From Ardenticatenales bacterium (lineage in GTDB: Bacteria; Chloroflexota; Anaerolineae; Promineifilales; Promineifilaceae), in assembly GCA_020634575.1 (NCBI GenBank), contig JACKBM010000021.1, forward strand, positions 1-64,000: a stretch of DNA of 64,000 nt, written 5' to 3'. Below, piece after piece: positions 30,574 to 43,498 of this stretch (position 1 is its first letter; every line of letters begins with the position of its first letter). A program made the translations under genes and the position numbers. Under the pieces are notes generated by a model. It worked only from the letters and a program-made list of their open reading frames with translations, did no database searches and was not told the origin of the DNA.

Positions 30574-31473
30574 TCAACGGAGTGTACGCACATGACGGGT
30601 CAGATAGAGGGATGCCGCCAGGGAATGTGGTTCTGACCAGCGCAGGCCAAAATAGCTGGCCTGGCTGACCTGCGCCAGGGTCTGCAACGCCGGCAGGTAA
30701 TCGTAATGGTCACCGGCAAAGGCCAGCGCCCCCAACACCATATCCGCCAGCCCCAGACGAACTGAAGGATAGTCCAGCTTCACGGTGGGCAACAACTGTC
30801 CACCGCGCAACGTCAGCGATACCCAGACCGTCTGGCCAGGCGAGACCAGCAGCGGATGCACGTCGCGCAAGCCGCTTGTAAACGCTTCACCCAGCCCCAG
30901 CTCAGTGCCAACCGCCAACAATCGCGCCAGTTCCGGCGCCCCGTCCTCGCAATATTGGGTGAAATAAACCTGGAACGGCGCCGCCTGCTCTGGGGCAAAA
31001 TCAGCCCCCAGGAAATGAGTGTGGTCCTTGTCCAACAGCCCAGCGCAGCGCTCAATTGTGGCGACATCCGCCCTGGAAATCCCCTGCCGGCCGAGCCAGA
31101 AGCCAACTTCCCGCACCGGCAGCGGCTTTTTCACATAGAGCTGCAGCCCGGGGCGATGGCTCAAACTCACTTTCAGCCCCCAGACCGCTGCGGCAGCGTA
31201 ACGGCGGAACTGGTCCCAGGTTTCCCTGGCCTCAGGCAGAAGCGCCAGCTGGTCCAGGTAAGCGGCGATGGTGTCCAGGTGGTCCGGACCGCGCCCCAGG
31301 CTGACGAGGGCCAGGTCGCCATCGCTCAGCGAAAGCTGGTATTCGACGTAATTTTGCGTCGCCGCCTGAAAATGGCGCAGGCTCGCCTGCCAGTCCGGCA
31401 GCAGCGGCAGCTTGAGTAGCTGGGCCAGCGCCGCCAGCTCGCGTTCAATGTCTGGCATGGACCCGGCCATCAT
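30574..31473 (-). CDS. Unrecognised 299-residue protein in eCIS-like operon
   Basis: Function unknown. It is a soluble, Leu/Ala-rich protein without signal peptide or membrane helices. It mixes helical N-terminal sequence (ELAALAQLLKLPLLPDW) with later segments that look like alternating beta-strands: LQLYVKKPLPVREVGFWLG, PFQVYFTQYCEDG, TVWVSLTLRGGQLLPTVKLD and YFGLRWSEPHSLAASLYL. The strand spacing and aromatic content faintly recall ABBA-barrel prenyltransferases, but this is a weak impression only. Its start overlaps the stop of the lipoprotein gene by four bases (ATGA type), so it is translationally coupled and belongs to the operon led by the annexin-repeat metalloprotease. Confidence 0.6.
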   Translation of the reverse strand: MMAGSMPDIERELAALAQLLKLPLLPDWQASLRHFQAATQNYVEYQLSLSDGDLALVSLGRGPDHLDTIAAYLDQLALLPEARETWDQFRRYAAAAVWGLKVSLSHRPGLQLYVKKPLPVREVGFWLGRQGISRADVATIERCAGLLDKDHTHFLGADFAPEQAAPFQVYFTQYCEDGAPELARLLAVGTELGLGEAFTSGLRDVHPLLVSPGQTVWVSLTLRGGQLLPTVKLDYPSVRLGLADMVLGALAFAGDHYDYLPALQTLAQVSQASYFGLRWSEPHSLAASLYLTRHVRTLR

Positions 31474-32429
31474 TCCTCGGTCAGCAAAATGCGGTCCGTC
31501 TCGACCGTGATCATCTGGCGAGCGGCGCCCTCGCCGGGGAACCAGAAGACGACGCGGGGCCGCAGGGCGTAGGTGGCGCCATCATTGGGTAGCTGGATGG
31601 GGGCCAGCGTCAGGCTGTAGACGGCACCGGGCGCCATCTCATGGACACCGGCCGGAAACACCCCCTCCGTCACAAACGCCTCAACCTGCTCACGGCTGAG
31701 GTCGATTGTCCGGTTCGGCAGCCAGATCGGGTCCGCCCCGGACACCGGCGTCTCTTTTTCCAGCACCAACGAAATACGCAGGAAGTAATTGGCATCGTCT
31801 GGCTCTAGCAGAAGCAACGGCAATGGTTCTGGACCGAGCTGGCTTAAATCCACCGTCGGCACCAGGCCCGCATCCGACTCATCCAAAAACAGATCAACGG
31901 CCACAGCACGCACCGGTTCGGACAGCAGTTCGGTCATGATGTCGACCAACTGCTGCTCCAGATCCGCCAGGGCCGGCTCGTCGCTGGTGTCCAGCAACGA
32001 AAATTGATAGCTTTCGCTCCCCTGTTCGATGGTGAGGTAGCGCGTGGTCGGGTCTGGCGAGGTGGCCTGCTCCTGCCGGGCCAAGTCCAGTACGCCCGCG
32101 TCAGCGATCTGCGCCTTTAACGCCGCAAATGTCTCGGCGGGCAGCGTTGCGCCAAAATAGCCCACCGTATTGCGCAGCAACGGCGGCACCGACCAGGAGC
32201 TGCCACTGAACAGCGTCGCCTGTCCCGCTGCGTCAATCTCAAGGCGCGCGTTGACGGTCGGTTGGCCACCCTGGGCGATATAGGTCAGTTTTGTAAATTC
32301 AGAATCTGTCATATCTGTTTCACTATCTGTGGTTGGTGTGGGCCCCTCAGTAGCTGGTGTCGGTGAACCAGCAATTGGTTGACAGGCCAGCAGAAGCAAA
32401 CCCAATACCAAAATAGACAGGCGTCTCAT
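31470..32429 (-). CDS. Lipoprotein in eCIS-like operon
   Basis: Predicted lipoprotein of 319 residues. MRRLSILVLGLLLLAC is a compact signal peptide with a clear lipobox (LLLAC), followed by a Thr/Pro/Ser linker to about residue 40. The domain from about 45 to 170 (KLTYIAQGGQPTVNARLEID, then a run around LPAETFAALKAQIADAG and a YLTIEQGSESYQFSL strand) resembles small secreted protease-inhibitor-like or potato-inhibitor-like modules only in general look; no family can be named. It starts eight bases after the stop of the annexin/metzincin gene and overlaps the next gene by four bases. A surface partner or inhibitor of that protease is one possible role (inference). Confidence 0.65.
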   Translation of the reverse strand: MRRLSILVLGLLLLACQPIAGSPTPATEGPTPTTDSETDMTDSEFTKLTYIAQGGQPTVNARLEIDAAGQATLFSGSSWSVPPLLRNTVGYFGATLPAETFAALKAQIADAGVLDLARQEQATSPDPTTRYLTIEQGSESYQFSLLDTSDEPALADLEQQLVDIMTELLSEPVRAVAVDLFLDESDAGLVPTVDLSQLGPEPLPLLLLEPDDANYFLRISLVLEKETPVSGADPIWLPNRTIDLSREQVEAFVTEGVFPAGVHEMAPGAVYSLTLAPIQLPNDGATYALRPRVVFWFPGEGAARQMITVETDRILLTEE

Positions 32430-32437
32430 CAGAGCAC

Positions 32438-35437
32438 CTACGGAACCAGCGTAAAGGCTGGCTCGATGAATTTCCCTGAACCGTCCTTGCGCCGGTTATC
32501 GTTAATCCAGTTAACAAAATAGTTCAGGTGGCGGGGATCAACCCGGGCCGCTGTGTTGCTGCCCATCACCGAATCATTGGTAAACCGTTCGTTGCCCACA
32601 TCATCCGTTGATTTGGTCGCATTGGGGTCGCCCACCGGGCTGTTGCCTACGGTTGCCTGGTAGTCAGCCGCCGACAGGTTGTATTCGTCCTTGTTGCCCA
32701 GCATGTGGCCAAATTCGTGGCTGGGTGCATTGGAGGAAAAACCGGCGGCGTCCGGATACCAGTTAGACAGATTGTACTCGCCGTAATTGACGCCATTAAC
32801 CTTGGAATAAACGTTGATGTTGTGATGGGGGTTGCTGCTGGTAAAGGCGCAATTGATGCGGATAGGCAGGTCGCCATTGCTGTTACGCACCTTGTATTTG
32901 TTGTCCCAGATCCCTTCGATCTGCGCCTCCAGCGTGGATTCGTAGGTCGACAGCTTGGTTTTGGCGCCATCATCGGCCGGGTTCATGTTGATCCGCACAT
33001 CGATCTGCATTCGGTCGCGATAATAGCCTACGTCAAAGGCACCAGTGCCAGTGTAGACCATCGGTTCAAAGATGTTGCCCGGGGTGCTGGGATCATCATT
33101 CTGCAACGTCTCATCCCAGCCATAATTGACGGATTCGTCGACGATGAGGCCCTGGTCCAGCATCCGCAGAAGGAAAATATATTGCTCGGCAGTTACCAGT
33201 GTCTGCAGCACATCACGCACGCCAGGTGACTGCTTCATCAGCTCAAAGTCGGCGTTGCTCATGTTGGCGATGGTCTGGCGGATGCTGTTGTAGTCGGGGC
33301 TGGTTTGCAGGGTATTGAGCAGGGTGGTGACACCGGCCGGATAACTCGCCGCATTGCCATACTCCAGATGCAGCCGCACTCGCCACAACCCAATCGCCCC
33401 GTAGGTGCTGAGGAAGCGGCCCAACAGTTCAGCCGCCAGCTTCACCTCATCCCGCTGCGGCACAGTTGCCGCCTCAATGATGGCCAGAATCGCCTCCAGC
33501 GCCGCGCCATCCGCCAGCGCCTGCTGCAGCTGATTGATGATCCAATCACCGAGGGCCGTCAGGATACGCTGGTTTTCCTCCTGAGTGAAATAACCCAGCA
33601 TGGCATCCAAAATGCCCCGGTTGGCCAGCACCTCCTGCTTGGCCGGCTCAGCCATCCCATTGATCAACGTCAGGAATTCGTCGATGCCGGCTTCCTGATC
33701 GATCAACGTGTGCAGCTGGTTGATCAGGCTGTCGCCCAGCAGATTCTGCGCCTGGCGATAATCCTCCGGTGTGAGCGCATCAGCCAGCCGTTCCATCAGC
33801 GAGCTGTTGGCCCGCACCAGCTCCTTGTCCGCCGGCGTGGCCGCGGCAATGTCCGTCATGATCTTGGCGGTGTCCGGCTCGTCCTTGGCCAGTTCCGCCG
33901 TGATGAGCGACGTCAGGTTTTCCGGCGATGTGGCCGCATTTAACTCTTCTTCGCTGGCGGCGTCGATTGCTTCCTGGCTACCAAAGCGGAGCAACAGGCG
34001 GGCCTGGCGGAAATCCTCCGCACTCATCTGGGCCTCGAGATCAGCCATCAACTGGGCATCGCTATAGGCGGCCAGCCGCTGCTCCTCGCTCACCTGCGGG
34101 ATCATCTCCAGGATGGCGGCGCTGTCCACACCCCAGCCTGACAGGGCCACGTTGAGCCGATCCGTCAGAGAGGCATCGATGTTTTTGAGGACGGTGAGCA
34201 TATCTTCGCGCGAAAGCTCGCTTTGCAGCCGGCTCAGCGTCTCCCGATCATGCAAGATAAGCTGCTTTTCGTCCGCTGACGCCTCATAGGCCATGTTCAA
34301 AATCGACTGAGCATCCACGCCCCAGCCATCCATCGCCACGTGCAGCCGGTCGATGATTGAGACGTTCAGCTCTTTGAGGATGCTTTGGACGAGGTAGCCC
34401 TGGGAAATCTCCTCGGTCAGCCGGGCAATCAGGGCACGGTCGCGGGCGGCGGCCTGTTTTTCCGCCGCAGTCGCATTGGTGCAGATAGTGATAATGGTGG
34501 CCGTATCGACGCCCCAGCCGGCCATCGCTGCATAAATCCGCTCGGCGATGGGTGCGCCGAGCCCGGTCAGGACGCGGACGGCCTGCTCCTGGCTCAACTC
34601 ATCCTTGAGCCGGTTCATCAGGGTGGGATTGCGCAGGACGGCATCTTTTTCAGCGGCTTTGCTGGCGGGCAGCCCTTCGACCATGGTAATGATGGCGTTG
34701 GCGTCGGCGCCCCAGCCATTCATGGCCACTTCCAGCCGTTTGCTGAGGGTGGCGCCGAGGTCGGTCAGGATCTCAAGGGCGTCGGCCCGACTGAGCTGGT
34801 CCTGCAGGCGGGCGACCAGGCGCGGGTCGTTAAGTGCCTGCTCCTTTTCAGTTGCCGAGGCGGCGATGATGGCGTTTTTCATCGCCTGCTTGTCAGCGCC
34901 CCAGCCATCCATTGCCTCATTGAGGTCATCGATCAGGTCGCGCTGGATGAGCTGACCGGCCGGTAAAACCGATTCATCTCGCTTGGCCTGAACCGAATTC
35001 TCTTCATATGCCAACGGAATGGAGGTATGGCGCTGCAATTGCGCCGTGTCCCGCTTGGCCTGGACGGAGTTTTCCTCATAGGCGAGGGCGACCGAGGTGT
35101 GGCGCTGGAGCTGCTGTTTACGCTGGGGGCGGACGGTGGCGGTCTGCCAGCGCCAGACACCAGTGCTCGGCGTGGCTTGAGCCGGGCGCTGCCGAGCCAT
35201 CATCTGGGGCGGACGGGGCAGCTGCTGTAGCTTGCCTTCGACGGCCCGGTTGCCGATGGTGCGCTGCAGGTAAAGGATGTAATCTGGCGTGGCTGCCGCC
35301 GTTGTGGCCTCAGGCTGAGCGGCGGCCGGCTGCGTTGTTGGCGTGTTTTTGGGTTTGCTGACCGGTTTTGCGGTTTGAGTGGTCTGCTGTTTCTTGGCCA
35401 AGGAAGATGGCTCCCGTAAATGAACAGGTCCAGGCAA
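32438..35437 (-). CDS. eCIS-cargo-like protein: annexin-type repeats plus metzincin protease
   Basis: A 999-residue multidomain protein. The N-terminus is low-complexity (Gln/Thr/Ala/Pro) and then carries YLQRTIGNRAV at 56-66, the hallmark of proteins linked to extracellular contractile injection systems (family knowledge). A 22-residue segment QLQRHTSxxLAYEENSVQAK follows twice (109 and 133). Five annexin-like repeats follow, marked by GWG(A/V)D at 178, 241, 307, 371 and 434 (period 63-66), and then more helical repeats to about 700. The C-terminus has HEFGHMLGNKD (907-917), a metzincin HExxHxxGxxD site with Asp as third ligand, and SVMGS (957-961) as Met-turn. No signal peptide. The annotated start is TTG at 35437; a TTG at 35401 with GGGAG nine bases upstream is equally good. 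No sheath, tube or baseplate genes are in the window, so it is an orphan candidate cargo or toxin. Confidence 0.85.
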   Translation of the reverse strand: MPGPVHLREPSSLAKKQQTTQTAKPVSKPKNTPTTQPAAAQPEATTAAATPDYILYLQRTIGNRAVEGKLQQLPRPPQMMARQRPAQATPSTGVWRWQTATVRPQRKQQLQRHTSVALAYEENSVQAKRDTAQLQRHTSIPLAYEENSVQAKRDESVLPAGQLIQRDLIDDLNEAMDGWGADKQAMKNAIIAASATEKEQALNDPRLVARLQDQLSRADALEILTDLGATLSKRLEVAMNGWGADANAIITMVEGLPASKAAEKDAVLRNPTLMNRLKDELSQEQAVRVLTGLGAPIAERIYAAMAGWGVDTATIITICTNATAAEKQAAARDRALIARLTEEISQGYLVQSILKELNVSIIDRLHVAMDGWGVDAQSILNMAYEASADEKQLILHDRETLSRLQSELSREDMLTVLKNIDASLTDRLNVALSGWGVDSAAILEMIPQVSEEQRLAAYSDAQLMADLEAQMSAEDFRQARLLLRFGSQEAIDAASEEELNAATSPENLTSLITAELAKDEPDTAKIMTDIAAATPADKELVRANSSLMERLADALTPEDYRQAQNLLGDSLINQLHTLIDQEAGIDEFLTLINGMAEPAKQEVLANRGILDAMLGYFTQEENQRILTALGDWIINQLQQALADGAALEAILAIIEAATVPQRDEVKLAAELLGRFLSTYGAIGLWRVRLHLEYGNAASYPAGVTTLLNTLQTSPDYNSIRQTIANMSNADFELMKQSPGVRDVLQTLVTAEQYIFLLRMLDQGLIVDESVNYGWDETLQNDDPSTPGNIFEPMVYTGTGAFDVGYYRDRMQIDVRINMNPADDGAKTKLSTYESTLEAQIEGIWDNKYKVRNSNGDLPIRINCAFTSSNPHHNINVYSKVNGVNYGEYNLSNWYPDAAGFSSNAPSHEFGHMLGNKDEYNLSAADYQATVGNSPVGDPNATKSTDDVGNERFTNDSVMGSNTAARVDPRHLNYFVNWINDNRRKDGSGKFIEPAFTLVP

Positions 35438-37480: not shown

Positions 37481-37677
37481 CAGTACGCTTTGCTTTCGGC
37501 GGTCAGTACGCTTCACTTTCGGCGGTCAGTACGCTTCGCTTTCGGTGGTCAGTACGCTTCGCTTTCAGTGGCTTGTACTCAACTGTCCACTGATAGGTGC
37601 GCAGCACCGTACTGATGGCCGAAAGGGCCGCAGGCACGTGCTCATGGCTGACAGGGCCACAGGCCCGTACTGACCGC
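37481..37677. repeat. Repeat family B, locus 2, with four 23-bp tandem units
   Basis: Begins with four tandem 23-base units of the form CAGTACGCTT(T/C)(G/A)CTTTC plus GG(C/T)GGT (37481-37572). Inverted words follow (CCGTACTGATGGCCGAAAGG, GGGCCGCAGG, GGCCCGTACTGACCGC) up to the stop codon of the NACHT gene. There are no unique spacers, so it is not a CRISPR array. It must contain the SpoU promoter and leader if these are local. Confidence 0.85.
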
Positions 37678-40097
37678 TAATACGCTCTATTAATCAAACA
37701 AAGCGCATTATAAGCCGCGTCGCGCAAGGGCGCATCTTCTTTCTGGATGAGTTGGTGCAGGGGATGGCGGGCAGCGGGGAGGGCAAACTGGCCAAGCGTG
37801 GCCGCCGCGGCGCAGCGGGCGTCTACAGCGCTACCTTTAGCCAGCAGATCGAGGAGAAAAGGCTCAGCGGCGGGACCGGCCGGTACAACCTTCTGCTGGC
37901 TGGCGCCCCAGGCCACCAGCCACGGCTGATCGCCCAGCCGGGCCGGCCGCCAGGAACGGCTGACGCGCTCCCGCTCCAACAGTTCCAGGGCAGACGCCGC
38001 CGCCGCATTGACAATCCATTCACTGTCCTCTTCAAGCCCTGAAAGCAGCGCCAATGCCCACGGTTCACCAATCTGGGCCAATCCATAACTGGCAGCCCGA
38101 CGCACCTCATGATCCTCATCGGTGGCCGCATCGCGCAGAACGTCCCAGCCTTCACCGCCCTGCCAGGCCAGCTGCTCAGCCACGCCGGCGCTCGTCATCT
38201 CGTCGGCTTCCAGCAGCAGCTTCAGCAACATGCGCTGTGCTACCGGGTGCGTCAGCGCACCCAGAGCCCGGACTGCGCCTTGCTGCAGGGCGGGCTGCCC
38301 CTCGACGGCCAGCAGCGTCTCCAGCAGTTCCAGCGCGGCCTGGGCCGGCAGCAAGGTCAGCGCGGCGATAGCGGTCTGCTGGATGGCCGGCTCACCACGG
38401 CGTAGCAGCTGTTCGATAAACAGGTGCAGACCACGGCGCTGCGTCAGCGCCACAGCCACGATGGCCCGCTGGCGCAACGCCAGCGGCGCCTCCGCTTGCA
38501 CAGCCAGACGACCCAACCGCGCCAGCACATCTTTTTGCCAGGGCAGATCGCCGGGAAGCTCGGTCAACCAGTTAGCCGCCTCGAACAGGCGCGGCTGGCG
38601 CAAGCTCTGGTCAGCCGGCGCCAGCATCGCTTCCGCCATGTCAGCCGCCCCATGGCGACCCACAAAGAAGAGGCGCACATCCTGCCAATCCCGGTTTTCG
38701 AGCCCTTCCAGAATGGGGCTGTTGTCACCCAGCTGAGCCAGGTAGCTGGCCGCCAGGTAATCACGCCAGAGCGGGCTGCGCAAAGCGATGTGGCCATTGG
38801 GCCAGACATGGAAGAGATCATTTTGGGCGAGGTGATCTAGTAACCGGCCGGTTGCCCCACTCGCCGTCACCTCGTACTCAGCCAGGATGGCCGCCGCATA
38901 CCCTTCCAGCTCGGCCCGCTCGACGTAACCGGCCGGACTGCGTAGCTGCGCCCAGGCCAGCTGCTCCCAAAGCTCGCGAGCGACCGGCGCCAACCAGGCC
39001 GGCTCGGCGTCCGCCGCCGGCAGCAGGTAGCGCAAAGCCGTCTCAAGCAGCTCGACACGCCGTTCCGGTTGGGGCAGATTTTCCGCCGCCAACAGGAGAC
39101 GCAAACGGGCCAAAAGCGGGCTCTGCCCGGGTCGCCAATAGCTGCCCAATGGCGGCAGACTGGCGCCGCCTCGCTGGGCCTGCCAGCGACGCTGTTGCTC
39201 AAAAACCTGCCCACCCTGCCAGGGTGGCAGCTCGCTGAGCAGAAAACCCAGCTTCAACAACGGACCATACCCATAAGCCGGCGCGGCCATGATAATGGGC
39301 AGCTTCGGCCGCTCCTTCAACAAAGCGCCCAGCCATTCCAGGGCCGGCAATCGTTGCGGCGCTGTCAGCTCATCCAACCCATCCAGAAAGAGCAAGAGCT
39401 CACCGGCGGCCAACTTATCACGCCAATAGGCAGCTAATCGTGGCCGCAGCAAGGTGGAAGCCCGGCGGCCCAACGCTTCCAACAGGGCTGTTTCCGCCCC
39501 GTCAGCGCCCAGTGTCAGCTCCTGAATATGTAGAAACACAGGCAGCCGCTGCTGATGGGGAGCCGGCTCGGCATCCTCATCCGGGGGCAGCGCCTGCAGG
39601 GCAAGCCAGGCCAGGGCCGTGCTCTTGCCGCTGCCAGGCAACCCGACCAGGGCCAGCCGCTGCGCACCGGCCAACATTTCAGCAGCCGGCAAAAGTGGCT
39701 GGGGCGGCAGGGCCAGCGGCTGCGCCAGTTCCGGCCAGAGCCGGGTGAAGGAAAGAAGCGCAGCCAACGCATCCTCACCCTCCTCCGGCTCCGGCATGGG
39801 TTGCAGGAAACGGGGTGTGACAACAATCTCCGACAGATGGGCCGCGGCGCCATCCAGATGATATCTTTGCAGATGGCTCCGTAGCTCAGACTGGTAGCGT
39901 TCGCTGCCGCTGGCGGCCAGCCGGCCCCGCGCCGCCGTCGCCCGCTGTTGCAAGCTGCGCCAGGCAGCCGCCAGCCGGGGCCAGAGCTGCTGCATGCCAA
40001 GCACCAGCAACATGCCGAGGATCAGGCCCAGCAGCAGCGAGATCGGCTCGAGCCGCCAGCGACCTATCTGCCAGAGTGTTGTCAACAACCCAAACAA
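37677..40097 (-). CDS. Membrane-anchored NACHT-type STAND ATPase with HEAT repeats
   Basis: An 806-residue signal-transducing ATPase. A transmembrane helix at about 19-35 is followed by a short linker. The NACHT domain has Walker A VGLPGSGKST (151-160) and extended Walker B LLLFLDGLDEL (234-244), with the acidic D-x-L-D-E pattern of NACHT proteins. The C-terminal part (about 540-800) consists of HEAT-like repeats, recognisable from recurring helices such as AIAALTLLPAQAALELLETLL and ALGALTHPVAQRMLLKLLL. Such proteins sense a ligand through the repeat region and oligomerise; several bacterial NACHT proteins act in phage defence (family knowledge). No effector domain other than the N-terminal helix is visible, so membrane disruption or signalling at the membrane is possible. 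Its stop codon lies at the very edge of repeat family B. The subtilase gene lies just upstream. Confidence 0.85.
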   Translation of the reverse strand: MFGLLTTLWQIGRWRLEPISLLLGLILGMLLVLGMQQLWPRLAAAWRSLQQRATAARGRLAASGSERYQSELRSHLQRYHLDGAAAHLSEIVVTPRFLQPMPEPEEGEDALAALLSFTRLWPELAQPLALPPQPLLPAAEMLAGAQRLALVGLPGSGKSTALAWLALQALPPDEDAEPAPHQQRLPVFLHIQELTLGADGAETALLEALGRRASTLLRPRLAAYWRDKLAAGELLLFLDGLDELTAPQRLPALEWLGALLKERPKLPIIMAAPAYGYGPLLKLGFLLSELPPWQGGQVFEQQRRWQAQRGGASLPPLGSYWRPGQSPLLARLRLLLAAENLPQPERRVELLETALRYLLPAADAEPAWLAPVARELWEQLAWAQLRSPAGYVERAELEGYAAAILAEYEVTASGATGRLLDHLAQNDLFHVWPNGHIALRSPLWRDYLAASYLAQLGDNSPILEGLENRDWQDVRLFFVGRHGAADMAEAMLAPADQSLRQPRLFEAANWLTELPGDLPWQKDVLARLGRLAVQAEAPLALRQRAIVAVALTQRRGLHLFIEQLLRRGEPAIQQTAIAALTLLPAQAALELLETLLAVEGQPALQQGAVRALGALTHPVAQRMLLKLLLEADEMTSAGVAEQLAWQGGEGWDVLRDAATDEDHEVRRAASYGLAQIGEPWALALLSGLEEDSEWIVNAAAASALELLERERVSRSWRPARLGDQPWLVAWGASQQKVVPAGPAAEPFLLDLLAKGSAVDARCAAAATLGQFALPAARHPLHQLIQKEDAPLRDAAYNALCLINRAY

Positions 40098-40102
40098 GCC
40101 AT

Positions 40103-43100
40103 TTAATCCTTAAAGATCAGCGGCAGGAACTTGAAATGAATCGAGCTACAAGCCGCATCAAGGTTGACGACATTCAGCGTCGCCCCACCAGCCTGGATCG
40201 GCGCCGCCAGGTCATTCACACGATGCCACAACTCAGTGGTCAACGGCACCATATCCTGCTGATACAGGCAGACATTGCGCGTTACCATCGCCTCGTAGCT
40301 GATCTCGGCTCCGGCGCCTGAGTTCGCCGCCAGATCACCTTCCCAGCTGAGGCCATTACCCAGGGGCTGCCCGCCCGCTGTGATGGAACTCGTGATGATC
40401 TGGAGACCAAAGGGCAGCGTATCGGTCAGGACGTAATGCAGGTCTTCCCAGCGCACGTTCGGTTGGATGGTTATCGTGAAGGGGACGGTATCGCCCAATT
40501 CAGCTGTGGCGACGGTCGCCTCGCTGACATCGTCCGCGGCCCGCTCCAGGTCAACCCAGATCGTGGGGCCGCCGTTGCGCACCACACCATCGTGCAGCAG
40601 CACCCGGCCATACCAGACATCGCCCGGCTGGGCAGAAAGATCCCAGATCAGGTCCAGATCAAAGGGCACGCCATTAACCGCCGACGCGGGCGCAGATGCG
40701 CTCATCTCGCCGGTAGCCAGCGCCGGGATCACGGCCGTCGCCAAATCAACAGTGTCGCTGATATTGCCGGAGCCGCCCCGATTCAGTACGACCAGCCAGT
40801 AGGTGCCGGCTGCCGGCTCGGCAAGCCGACATTCCTCCACCCAACTGGAGAGCGTACTGCTACAGACCAGTTCGCCTGCTTCGGGCAGCCCATCGCCACC
40901 GTCCAGGCCTAGATACAGATTGATGTTGGGTGACTCGGAGCTGAGCATCTCAGCGACCAGACCGCCGCTGTTGGCCGGCACGGTGAAGGTAAAGAAGGTT
41001 GTCGTCCCATCATTGAGGTTGTCGTACGGATTGCTGGGCGTTGGGTCTGTGCCGAGGGCAAACTGATGGCGATCGGCCAGGGTCAGCCCCTGAACATCCA
41101 CCGTTAAAGTCGGCACGTCATTCATGACCAGATCGTTGTATGTTGCTGAGCCCTGATCGCGCCGGATTTCGAGGTTGATCTGCTCCGGCACGGCGGCCCC
41201 GGTCGGGCGCACCGCCAGGGGCAGTTGCGTTACCGGCGCCTGGTCGCCAGCCTCATGCCAGAGGATACGACCAAACTGCCAGCTCCCTTCGGCCGCCCCG
41301 TTGATGGTCGCTGTGACCGTAAAGCTCTGGGTGGCCCCGGGAGCCAGGGTGAAGCTCGACGGCGACACGGTCAGGCTGATGCCAGCCGGCGCCTGGATGT
41401 CGACGGTCCAGCTGCCGGTTGTCGCCAGCGCGTTGCTGACCGTGCGGACCCATTGACATTGGGCCACGCAGTCCGCCTGGGCCAGGGTGGCCAGGTTGAG
41501 CTGTTCCGGATCGCCGTTACGGGCCGGATCAGCCGTCATAAAGTTCGCCACACTCTCATCAAAGAGGAGACCGGCGTTAATGGCATCAGCCACATAGACA
41601 CGGCCAGCGCCGACATCAAAGGGATCGGCCGGTGTGACCCAATCCGCTTTGGTGGCGTAGGTGTAGATAGCAGTGGAGACGATGGCCGACTGCACCTCAG
41701 CGGCGCTCCAACCGGGCCGCTCCACCTGAATAAGCGCTGCCGCCCCGGCTGCGGCCGGGCTGGCAAAGGATGTGCCAAGACCAAGCGTGTATTCATTGCC
41801 TTCCACAGCAGAGACGATGACCCAGCCGGGGGCGATGACATCCGGCCGGATCACCGACGGCACGGTCGGGTTCGGGCCACGCGACGAGGCATTAATGATA
41901 TGGTCGCCATTCTCAATGTCGTAAGAAACGCTGGAACCGGAAATGGTCGCCATATGACCGCTGCCGCTGGCCAGCCAGGTACGCAGCAAAGCCGCATCAT
42001 CAGACTGGATACGCATACCGGGCAGCGAATATTCAAACAGGCCGCCATACATCAGCAGGCTGGGCCGGGCCATGACCACGCCGCCACCGCCAGCGTCCTT
42101 GACGTAATTTGCCTTGACATCGCTGCCAATCCCACCACCGTCTTCGCACATGACAATGGCCGGACCATTCCCATTGATATTGCTGAACGTATTGGCCGGG
42201 AACGGCGAGGCGCATTTGCCATCGGCCGAATTATTGGCCGGGATCCCGTCATAATCCCGAGCGTGGACTATTGGCGCCGGCCCAAAGCCGTCGCCAATCC
42301 CTTCGCCGCGGATATCGGCCGGGGGCGTCGTCGCCCCGCCACTCATGTTTTCGACATAATTAGCATAGGAACGGTCGTGAGTGGACATACCGACCGCCAG
42401 CAACCAGGGCGCATCAGGCCCCGCTTCAATAGAGGCCGCTGACGGACCACGGTTACCCGCGGCCGCAGCGACAAACGTCCCGGCGGCTCGCAAGCCGAGC
42501 AAAGCCTGGGTAACCGGGCTCTGCCACGGGTCGATCGGCGTGCCACCGATGGAGTAGTTCAACACATCCACCTGATCCACGGCCGCTTGCTCTAAAGCTG
42601 CCAGGATCATGTGGGCCAGGCAGGCCTCGCCCGCACAGGCATCATATGAAATCAGGTTGGCATGAGGGGCAACGCCAGACAGCGTCATCACCTCGGTCGC
42701 TGTGGGCAAGGGCAACGTGTACGTGACGAAGTTGCCCGCCGCGACGTGGGCGACAAACGTGCCATGGTCATAGCGGAAATCGGTTGGCGTGATGCCATCA
42801 CCCGAAAAATCGTACAGCCCGATTAACTTGTCGTTACACAAAGCGGGATTTGTCGTCAGGCAGTAGCCGTACAGTTGGCCGCGGGGGTTGTCATGGTCAT
42901 AGCCATCCACAATGCCGATGTCGGCAAATGAATCATGGGCATAATCGATGCCGGTATCGACAACGCCAATGACCTGCCCTTCGCCCATGTTGCCGGCACT
43001 GCCGGTGGCCGAGCCATCCCAGACCGGCGGCGCCCCGAGAAAGCGCGGTGTGGCATCTGAAAGGGGTTCGTAGGCGATGGAAGGGCTTACCTGGAGGACA

Positions 43101-43498
43101 TCCGGCAGCGCGGCGAGTTCTTCCGCCTCTGCCGGCATCAGGGCCAGGGCCAGGCCGTTAAACACAACCTGATACTGCCTTTCTGGCGTCAGTGACCGGT
43201 CGAGCAGGCCAGCCGCGTCGCTCAGGAAGCGTTCCTGTTGAGCAACCAGGTGCGCCCGGTAAGCGGCGGCCTCGGGCAGGGCTAGATTGAGGCGTTCCTG
43301 GCCGGCCAGTTCAGGCCGGGTGGCAGGCAGGCCGGCCAGCCCGCCATCGTACAGGGCCAGGGGCATATCGGTAAGTGAGATGATGTAAATCTGCGGTTCC
43401 GCCGCCAGCGCCTGGCTGGCCGGCGAGGTACGCAAGGCTAGCAACAGCACGGCCAACGGCAACAGAACTGTAGCCAGAACAGTAATGACTCGTTTCAT
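40103..43498 (-). CDS. Secreted subtilisin-like serine protease (S8) with PA insert
   Basis: A large exported S8 peptidase of 1131 residues. Signal peptide about 1-33 ending SQALAAEP. An inhibitor-like propeptide is likely up to about 140. The catalytic triad is Asp in GVVDTGIDYAHD (about 178), His in DHGTFVAHVAAG (about 246) and Ser in GLGTSFASPAAAG (about 576). A protease-associated (PA) domain is inserted at about 390-530. Beta-sandwich modules follow: an Ig-like segment, a pre-peptidase C-terminal domain (about 820-920, NINLYLGLDGGDG and YWLVVLNRGGSG) and a DUF11-like module near the end. The last residues are HFKFLPLIFKD, a hydrophobic LPLI tail shared with other secreted proteins of this lineage. 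The ribosome binding site AAGGGAG is well placed. Confidence 0.93.
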   Translation of the reverse strand: MKRVITVLATVLLPLAVLLLALRTSPASQALAAEPQIYIISLTDMPLALYDGGLAGLPATRPELAGQERLNLALPEAAAYRAHLVAQQERFLSDAAGLLDRSLTPERQYQVVFNGLALALMPAEAEELAALPDVLQVSPSIAYEPLSDATPRFLGAPPVWDGSATGSAGNMGEGQVIGVVDTGIDYAHDSFADIGIVDGYDHDNPRGQLYGYCLTTNPALCNDKLIGLYDFSGDGITPTDFRYDHGTFVAHVAAGNFVTYTLPLPTATEVMTLSGVAPHANLISYDACAGEACLAHMILAALEQAAVDQVDVLNYSIGGTPIDPWQSPVTQALLGLRAAGTFVAAAAGNRGPSAASIEAGPDAPWLLAVGMSTHDRSYANYVENMSGGATTPPADIRGEGIGDGFGPAPIVHARDYDGIPANNSADGKCASPFPANTFSNINGNGPAIVMCEDGGGIGSDVKANYVKDAGGGGVVMARPSLLMYGGLFEYSLPGMRIQSDDAALLRTWLASGSGHMATISGSSVSYDIENGDHIINASSRGPNPTVPSVIRPDVIAPGWVIVSAVEGNEYTLGLGTSFASPAAAGAAALIQVERPGWSAAEVQSAIVSTAIYTYATKADWVTPADPFDVGAGRVYVADAINAGLLFDESVANFMTADPARNGDPEQLNLATLAQADCVAQCQWVRTVSNALATTGSWTVDIQAPAGISLTVSPSSFTLAPGATQSFTVTATINGAAEGSWQFGRILWHEAGDQAPVTQLPLAVRPTGAAVPEQINLEIRRDQGSATYNDLVMNDVPTLTVDVQGLTLADRHQFALGTDPTPSNPYDNLNDGTTTFFTFTVPANSGGLVAEMLSSESPNINLYLGLDGGDGLPEAGELVCSSTLSSWVEECRLAEPAAGTYWLVVLNRGGSGNISDTVDLATAVIPALATGEMSASAPASAVNGVPFDLDLIWDLSAQPGDVWYGRVLLHDGVVRNGGPTIWVDLERAADDVSEATVATAELGDTVPFTITIQPNVRWEDLHYVLTDTLPFGLQIITSSITAGGQPLGNGLSWEGDLAANSGAGAEISYEAMVTRNVCLYQQDMVPLTTELWHRVNDLAAPIQAGGATLNVVNLDAACSSIHFKFLPLIFKD

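What the first reader, a model, noticed from the sequence alone, without database searches (positions are those of the whole stretch)
32438..35437. Orphan eCIS-cargo-like protein: five annexin-type repeats and a metzincin protease
Seen: LQRTIGNRAV at 57-66; GWG(A/V)D repeats at 178, 241, 307, 371 and 434; HExxHxxGxxD at 907-917 and SVMGS Met-turn. Known: LQRTIGNRAV-type N-termini mark proteins linked to extracellular contractile injection systems, annexin repeats bind membranes or phospholipid, and metzincins are zinc proteases. Inference: a membrane-docking protease delivered by a contractile particle or acting on the cell surface. This domain order is not one I recognise as described.
Basis: partly seen in the sequence, partly recalled or inferred. 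Interest (0 to 1): 0.85.

Follow-up and report, generated by a model that had tools for sequence, protein, structure and literature searches.

The report
Annexin-repeat protease, likely contractile-injection cargo
A bacterium, probably of the Chloroflexota, encodes a large protein that joins a short cargo tag, a long stack of annexin-type repeats and a zinc-protease domain; relatives of its tag and protease sit inside gene clusters for phage-tail-like injection particles, so it is probably an injected protease, a new version of a kind of toxin already described in outline.

The parts
32438..35437 (-). Whole ORF, 999 aa: leader, disordered linker, annexin-type repeat array, C-terminal metzincin-type domain
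   Evidence: 14 proteins found; 13 of them aligned with it
34940..35437 (-). Residues 1-166: mostly disordered, polar, basic N-terminus without an obvious Sec signal peptide (by eye); true start perhaps TTG at 35401
   Evidence: pLDDT under 50 over nearly all of 1-166; upstream sequence
35240..35269 (-). LQRTIGNRAV leader motif (residues 57-66), in a low-confidence predicted helix pair 51-70
   Evidence: same motif on genes of an eCIS locus
34967..35110 (-). Two 24-residue copies of LQRHTS..LAYEENSVQAKR (residues 110-157); similar QRHTS..EN units in many relatives; role unknown
33980..34948 (-). Annexin-type repeats 1-5 (residues 164-486), each with a GWG[AV]D loop; acidic Ca2+-site residue present in repeats 2, 3, 4 and Q in 1 and 5
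   Evidence: Pfam, model, alignment
33356..33925 (-). Annexin-type repeats 6-8 (residues 505-694), without GxG loops
   Evidence: repeat-profile hits in 14 of 14 rows; five-helix units in the model; annexins A13 and A4 align to 506-630
33146..33349 (-). Ninth five-helix unit (residues 697-764), by predicted structure only
   Evidence: not found by the repeat profile
32441..33154 (-). C-terminal metzincin-type zinc peptidase domain (residues 762-999)
32681..32719 (-). Zinc motif HEFGHMLGNKDEY (residues 907-919): predicted ligands H907, H911, D917, base E908
   Evidence: invariant H, E, F, G, H, G, N, D, E, Y in 14 of 14 rows
32558..32572 (-). Met-turn SVMGS (residues 956-960), M958 invariant
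31470..32429 (-). Downstream partner gene, putative lipoprotein (319 aa), 8 bases after the protease ORF; distant relative of proteins encoded directly downstream of leader-type proteases in five Chloroflexota genomes; possible inhibitor or immunity protein
   Evidence: best outside hit (19.7 bits, E 1.7e-4) of the partner profile among 2,567 ORFs; DUF6438 E 0.0015, Emfourin E 0.042, both under cut-off

Best explanation
[quoted passage not shown] The disordered N-terminus with the LQRTIGNRAV helix is the loading tag, read by the Pvc15-type AAA ATPase or by a separate eCIS_core protein carrying the same tag (inferred). After contraction and entry into a target cell, the array of annexin-type repeats binds anionic phospholipid, probably Ca2+-dependently through repeats 2-4 (inferred), and holds the C-terminal zinc protease at the membrane, where it cleaves membrane-proximal substrates (inferred; substrate and target organism unknown). 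The gene directly downstream belongs to a partner family of such proteases and may keep the enzyme off in the producer (inferred). Shown here: the domains, the conserved zinc site, the shared leader, that leader-bearing proteins with related protease domains are encoded in eCIS loci, and the recurring partner.
For: Annexin and nine five-helix repeats (repeats 6-8 by profile in 14 of 14 rows). Metzincin-type C-terminus; zinc site and Met invariant in 14 of 14 rows of A1. Relatives P0007 and P0008 (35% and 40% identity) have eCIS_core PF13699 at E 3.4e-13 and 5.5e-32. G215: LQRSAGNAAV + PG_binding + related protease begins 4 bases after the AAA ATPase gene, which overlaps the Pvc16 gene, next to sheath, tube, spike and baseplate J genes; two more leader genes lie beside it, one with eCIS_core. 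G406 and G720: leader-protease genes on the same contig as a PF22977-AAA gene, the domain found at the N-terminus of G215's ATPase. G414: leader-eCIS_core gene beside leader-annexin-PG_binding-protease. Pvc16 in 6 of 6 leader-type genomes of the phylum sample versus 82 of 400 overall, and 7 of 9 versus 22 of 177 in one class (Fisher 6e-5 and 5e-6); over all samples 10 of 14 leader-type versus 0 of 9 leaderless hits, p 0.0016. Partner gene.
Against: No eCIS gene among the 24 window ORFs scanned (87 ORFs of 150 aa or more are listed) and the genome is not held, so presence of an eCIS in this organism is untested. The protein lacks eCIS_core itself. Four of 14 leader-type genomes have no Pvc16 hit (G406, G460, G720, G763), and G460 lacks sheath and PF22977 too. 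In the class of G244, Pvc16 is common (39 of 120) while both new leader-type genomes there lack it. No genome searched gave a match over the full nine-repeat architecture, so the synteny is from relatives of the leader and protease, not of the whole protein. The strict leader is found in only 7 of the 13 relatives in A1. Fisher tests ignore kinship, and samples overlap. Two leader-type genomes (G244, G292) carry other HExxH peptidases and one (G401) has eCIS_core instead of the leader. Ca2+ loops are lost in most repeats of P0011, P0012 and P0013. Foldseek itself found no metzincin at E <= 0.001, and its annexin hit has TM-scores under 0.2. Related annexin-like + metallopeptidase modules also ride on WXG100, so other export routes exist.
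Confidence: 0.65

Rival explanations
1. A secreted or surface protease of the bacterium itself: the annexin array tethers it to its own membrane or vesicles and it works in nutrition or surface remodelling, exported by an unknown route or by lysis; the LQR leader is a relic.
For: No eCIS gene in the window ORFs scanned. The same protease domain occurs without the strict leader in 17 of 17 GTDB loci, some with what look like Sec signals and PEP-CTERM-like tails (by eye). Several neighbours are housekeeping genes.
Against: No Sec signal visible at the N-terminus; leader conserved in part of the family. Leader-type hits track Pvc16, leaderless ones do not.
Confidence: 0.15
2. A self-directed effector: as reported for Streptomyces contractile systems, it is released inside the producing cell during stress, docks on the cell's own membrane and helps programmed lysis; the downstream lipoprotein restrains it until then.
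For: PMC10020575 and PMC11126660 (search listings only) link contractile systems to cell death and development; a recurring partner gene follows such proteases.
Against: No direct evidence on the producer; a partner gene fits protection from an exported effector equally well.
Confidence: 0.1
3. Type VII-like (ESX/WXG100) or another export route carries it, the leader being an adaptor tag for that route.
For: Swappable heads: the module behind the LQRTIGNRAV leader of L030 is 41.5% identical over 313 aa (E 6e-73) to the one behind WXG100 in L028.
Against: The three genomes with that WXG100 protein (G038, G047, G106) have no Pvc16 while the LQRTIGNRAV genome G292 has it, which fits separate routes for separate heads.
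Confidence: 0.06

Closest known systems
PVC-SS/eCIS toxins with an annexin domain followed by a C-terminal enzymatic domain (Zhang et al. 2012, PMC3482391, passages; bacterial annexins 2014, PMC3894181, passages; eCIS survey 2021, PMC8213781, passages)
   Same: Annexin module between an eCIS-type N-terminus and a C-terminal metallopeptidase; annexin proposed to act on the target membrane
   Different: The 2012 text describes a single annexin domain, the PVC-metallopeptidase (DUF4157) head, and an anthrax-lethal-factor-like peptidase or Ntox3 at the end. Here there are eight to nine repeats, no eCIS_core in the protein itself, a leader motif, and a metzincin-type HExxHxxGxxD domain
Metzincins (snapalysin M7, M6, M10, M12, M64; family names recalled)
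   Same: HExxHxxGxxD, Met-turn, fold neighbours ADAMTS, ADAM, snapalysin, karilysin, MMP-9, hatching enzyme
   Different: No Pfam or NCBIfam peptidase family reaches its cut-off on this protein
Eukaryotic annexins (VI, XII, A4, A5)
   Same: Five-helix repeats, GxG loop, best sequence and fold matches
   Different: Repeats of about 62-68 aa, nine units with a linker after the fifth in place of four or eight, GWG[AV]D in place of GxGT (recalled), four units without GxG loops
eCIS_core (DUF4157, PF13699) proteins
   Same: Same kind of leader on eCIS_core proteins in G215, G406 and G414; eCIS_core stands where the leader would be in P0007, P0008 and G401's protein
   Different: Absent from the window protein
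Emfourin / DUF6438 proteins (for the downstream gene)
   Same: Weak Pfam matches of the window gene (E 0.042 and 0.0015) and of G244's downstream gene (DUF6438 E 0.0086)
   Different: Under the cut-offs; the other nine downstream genes scanned match no Pfam family

Membership tests
Annexin (PF00191) | Pfam score over gathering cut-off | tested here: met
   38.9 bits against 25, E 9.6e-10
Annexin (PF00191) | Repeats of five helices | tested here: met
Annexin (PF00191) | Four-repeat core (eight in annexin VI) | tested here: not met
   Eight repeats by profile, nine by model, split 5 + 4 by a linker; bacterial members vary in number (PMC3894181)
Annexin (PF00191) | Type II Ca2+ site: GxG loop plus downstream acidic residue (definition recalled) | tested here: inconclusive
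   Loop in 5 of 9 repeats, acidic partner in 3 of those 5; in A1, repeat 3 has both in 13 of 14 rows and repeat 4 in 10 of 14
Annexin (PF00191) | Ca2+-dependent phospholipid binding | not testable with these tools
   -
Metzincin | HExxHxxGxx(H/D) zinc motif | tested here: met
   907-917, invariant in 14 of 14 rows
Metzincin | Met-turn | tested here: met
   M958 invariant in 14 of 14 rows of A1 and 33 of 33 of A2; geometry not inspected
Metzincin | Metzincin fold | tested here: met
Metzincin | Zinc-dependent peptidase activity | not testable with these tools
   -
Named peptidase families M6, M7, M10, M12, M64 | Curated score cut-off | tested here: not met
   Window protein: no Pfam peptidase at E <= 1; NCBIfam M6 domain 15.8 bits against 110.8
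eCIS cargo | eCIS_core (DUF4157) in the protein | tested here: not met
   but present in relatives P0007 and P0008
eCIS cargo | Encoded in or beside an eCIS locus | tested here: inconclusive
   None in the 24 window ORFs scanned; genome not held; a leader-protease relative is in such a locus
eCIS cargo | Disordered N-terminal signal of about 50-70 aa (PMC11495950, passages) | tested here: met
   Residues 1-166 mostly pLDDT under 50; no score from the published classifier was computed
eCIS cargo | Loading into the particle | not testable with these tools
   -
Polymorphic toxin | Exchange of heads and C-terminal domains | tested here: met
   Leader or eCIS_core heads with annexin or PG_binding middles and related proteases; WXG100 swap
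Polymorphic toxin | Dedicated immunity gene | tested here: inconclusive
   Recurring homologous downstream gene, window copy at E 1.7e-4; inhibitory function untested

The most novel reading that the evidence does not exclude
LQRxxGNxAV is a common, sequence-conserved loading tag for eCIS cargo in Chloroflexota, shared by eCIS_core adaptor proteins and by unlinked 'orphan' effectors; and these effectors are a class of injected metzincins, here moored to the membrane by a nine-unit annexin array, each encoded with its own inhibitor directly downstream, which makes an effector-immunity pair in a system where immunity genes are often missing.
Probability: 0.3. Interest if true: 0.78.

Novelty: new variant of a known kind. 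Interest (0 to 1): 0.57.

Why it matters
PMC11297309 (passages) states that a conserved eCIS signal sequence was not detected, and PMC3482391 (passages) that a notable share of PVC-type systems lack adjacent immunity genes. If the leader seen here is a loading tag, orphan effectors of these particles could be found by sequence anywhere in a genome, and loading becomes a pull-down experiment. If the downstream partner inhibits the protease, these are effector-immunity pairs. The protein also shows how far annexin arrays were expanded in bacteria.

Tried and rejected
Plasmid and phage record searches with the protein: no match. IMG/VR scans with A1 and with the protein: no relative. Class of G244: 3 of 298 genomes, no full-length match. 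Filing the protease under M6, M7 or M64: cut-offs not met on the window protein; two leaderless relatives reach or approach Pfam's M6 cut-off of 22 bits (L009 25.1, L005 21.9). Chance origin of the leader: 38 hits in about 704,000 aa of ORFs in the fetched loci (chosen for such genes, with overlapping copies) against 0 after shuffling. Sheath PF17482 as eCIS marker: 10 of 12, but it also rings in E. coli, B. subtilis and Synechococcus, so not specific. PF22977 also rings in Methanosarcina acetivorans. Pfam on ten downstream genes: nine match nothing at E <= 10, one has DUF6438 at 0.0086. The window lipoprotein alone finds only two relatives in the protein search (99 and 84%; 7,998 candidates scored) and 3 of 400 genomes with partial matches near E 5e-4. 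My first view that this pairing could not be tested was wrong and was mended on re-check. Downstream genes of G292 and G401 are unlike the partner family; those of G458, G460 (alike, and G459 by eye) form another group; G244 and G763 are inconclusive; G035 and G414 end too soon.

Rows dropped: P0001 (partial near-copy) is not in A1; L011, L015 and L017 are not in A2. The L rows of A2 were found with the pattern HEFGH[ML]LG, so the invariance of HE..H..G in those rows is partly by construction; the rows of A1 were not found that way.

Papers: PMC8213781, PMC3894181, PMC11297309, PMC3482391, PMC11495950 and PMC13277306 were seen as find-passages only; PMC10020575 and PMC11126660 as search listings. 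A search for six spelled leader strings found 0 papers in the open PMC library; this does not cover figures, supplements, subscription papers or preprints.
Full report
What is in the sequence. The minus-strand ORF 32438..35437 encodes 999 aa. The quoted motifs are present at the quoted residues. Pfam gives Annexin at E 9.6e-10, over its cut-off, and no peptidase family at E <= 1; NCBIfam gives a far sub-threshold M6 hit at 905-956. The best solved-structure sequence matches are annexins VI and XII. The first 166 residues are predicted disordered apart from short low-confidence helices at 51-70 that contain LQRTIGNRAV. Two 24-residue copies of a LQRHTS..YEENSVQAKR unit follow; similar units recur in many relatives.

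The family. Fourteen proteins were found with the whole sequence and 13 with the protease part, nine of them already seen. Two records carry organism names: Anaerolineales (99% identical, partial) and Thermomicrobiales. P0007 and P0008 have eCIS_core. P0004, P0007 and P0008 carry an additional domain of roughly 190 aa after repeat 5 with a second HExxH-like motif, which reads REYQH in P0008. A strict LQxxxGNxxV-type motif is found in the window protein and in 7 of the 13 relatives of A1 (P0002, P0003, P0004, P0010-P0013); P0005-P0009 lack the strict form (P0005, P0006 and P0009 have a looser GN version by eye) and P0014 starts within the repeats; P0015-P0018 all have it.

The eCIS link by co-occurrence. 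I searched 400 Chloroflexota genomes with A1: 12 had matches. Reading the ORFs, six had a leader-type N-terminus with a metallopeptidase: G035, G215, G244, G268 and G292 with an LQ/VQ..GN leader, G401 with eCIS_core; G244 and G292 carry other HExxH peptidases. Six did not (G001, G038, G047, G106, G114, G285). Pvc16_N, which rings in none of 14 control genomes, was found in 82 of the same 400 (80 over the cut-off): in all six of the first group and none of the second. In the 177 genomes of G215's class, 12 had A2 matches; nine are leader-type (G035, G215, G268, G406, G414, G420, G458, G459, G460), three are not (G486, G490, G525). Pvc16 was in 22 of 177, in seven of the nine and none of the three. 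Fisher p is 6e-5 and 5e-6. In the class of G244, 3 of 298 genomes matched; the two new ones, G720 (looser leader) and G763, have no Pvc16 hit, although 39 of 120 genomes sampled from that class do. Together 10 of 14 leader-type genomes have Pvc16 and 0 of 9 leaderless hits do (p 0.0016; before G720 and G763 were added it was 10 of 12, p 2e-4). The samples overlap and kinship is not corrected for. In G035 and in one of the G406 genes the leader and the protease lie in different reading frames across a masked stretch, so their being one gene is assumed.

The eCIS link by synteny. In G215 contig C5 the order on one strand is Pvc16, AAA ATPase (overlapping by four bases), then after 4 bases the leader + PG_binding + protease gene; a leader + eCIS_core gene follows further on, and sheath, tube, spike (Phage_base_V/GPD) and baseplate J genes run divergently on the other side. 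A third leader gene lies beyond. In G406 contig C67 three leader genes, among them leader + two annexin repeats + protease (Pfam Annexin E 2.7e-26) and leader + eCIS_core, share a 16.6-kb contig with a PF22977-AAA gene that runs to its end. In G720 a PF22977-AAA gene is followed by a cargo-like gene and then by leader + protease, with a PG_binding-like middle by eye. In G414 leader + eCIS_core is followed by leader + annexin + PG_binding + protease (annexin E 1.5e-23). PF22977 as the N-terminal domain of the loader-type ATPase is my inference from G215.

Swapped heads. L030 (G292) has LQRTIGNRAV + PG_binding before a module that is 41.5% identical over 313 aa to the module behind WXG100 in L028. 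The three genomes with the WXG100 form have no Pvc16. This is what polymorphic toxins do and argues that the leader is a trafficking head.

A partner gene. The gene 8 bases downstream in the window is a putative lipoprotein (LLLACQP by eye) with weak DUF6438 (E 0.0015) and Emfourin (E 0.042) matches. Emfourins are inhibitors of metalloproteases (recalled). On re-check I read the ORF directly downstream of 15 leader-type protease genes. Six of them (G215, two in G406, G720, G268, and a cut-off one in G420) are homologous to one another: most pairs score between 20 and 127 bits by phmmer, the pairs G406a-G406b, G406a-G420 and G268-G420 less. Their starts, chosen by eye, overlap or lie close to the protease stop. 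A profile of these six was run against 2,567 ORFs of 100 aa or more from the window and all loci (overlapping copies included) and 3,000 shuffled sequences: after the family itself, the best hit is the window's downstream gene, 19.7 bits, E 1.7e-4; the next ORF has 13.1 bits, the best shuffled sequence 9.6, the best shuffle of the window gene 6.0. With G720 left out of the profile it stays the best outside hit, but at 13.4 bits and E 0.015. hhalign gives P 8e-4 with a probability of only 24%. Against: nine of ten downstream genes match no Pfam family; G458 and G460 share another type of downstream gene (343 bits to each other), G292 and G401 have unrelated ones, G244 and G763 are inconclusive. 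So a partner gene is likely; that it inhibits the protease is a guess. This new fact is why I raised confidence from 0.62 to 0.65, the novel reading from 0.25 to 0.3 and interest slightly.

Context in the window. Of 24 ORFs scanned, this one included, none matches an eCIS structural family; neighbours include DNA polymerase III beta subunit, SpoU methylase, a NACHT-HEAT protein, a subtilase, FHA, PP2C and FtsX proteins, and by eye a glutaminyl-tRNA synthetase.

Comparison with what is known. Zhang et al. [quoted passage not shown] PMC3894181 lists Haliangium annexins with DUF4157 and Peptidase_M90. PMC8213781 lists annexin among predicted eCIS toxin domains. The kind is therefore known. New here, as far as the passages and searches show, are the array of eight to nine repeats, the metzincin-type domain, the leader in place of eCIS_core and its sharing with eCIS_core proteins inside eCIS loci, and the partner gene. 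PMC11297309 states that a conserved eCIS signal sequence was not detected; PMC11495950 says that signal peptides of eCIS clades can be grouped by alignment (abstract); six spelled versions of the leader give 0 papers in the open library.

Mechanism, step by step. Cargo of an eCIS: supported for relatives, inferred for this protein. Leader as loading tag: inferred. Membrane docking by the array: inferred from family knowledge. Proteolysis: inferred from the zinc site. Restraint by the downstream partner: inferred. Target: unknown.

Noticed in passing
P0004, P0007, P0008 (after annexin repeat 5): Extra domain of roughly 190 aa with a second HExxH-like motif, REYQH (first H lost) in P0008.
   Followed up: no
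L026, L028, L029 versus L030: WXG100 head and LQRTIGNRAV head on homologous annexin-like + HEGxH metallopeptidase modules (L030 versus L028: 41.5% over 313 aa).
   Followed up: partly
L042, L043 (G215 contig C5): Chloroflexota eCIS locus with three LQR-leader genes, one of them directly after the AAA ATPase.
   Followed up: yes
L070 (G460), L071 (G458): Leader-protease genes followed by a second type of conserved downstream gene (343 bits to each other), not clearly related to the partner family of G215.
   Followed up: partly
L003, L004, L007, L012: Leaderless versions of the protease domain with PEP-CTERM-like tails (by eye), suggesting a wide, unnamed peptidase family.
   Followed up: no
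window 37677..40097 (-): NACHT + HEAT-repeat protein, possibly a defence or signalling STAND protein; beside a subtilase at 40103..43498.
   Followed up: no
L031, L032, L033: Chloroflexota proteins that match the annexin part weakly behind WXG-like N-termini (by eye), with a shared C-terminal domain of unknown type.
   Followed up: no
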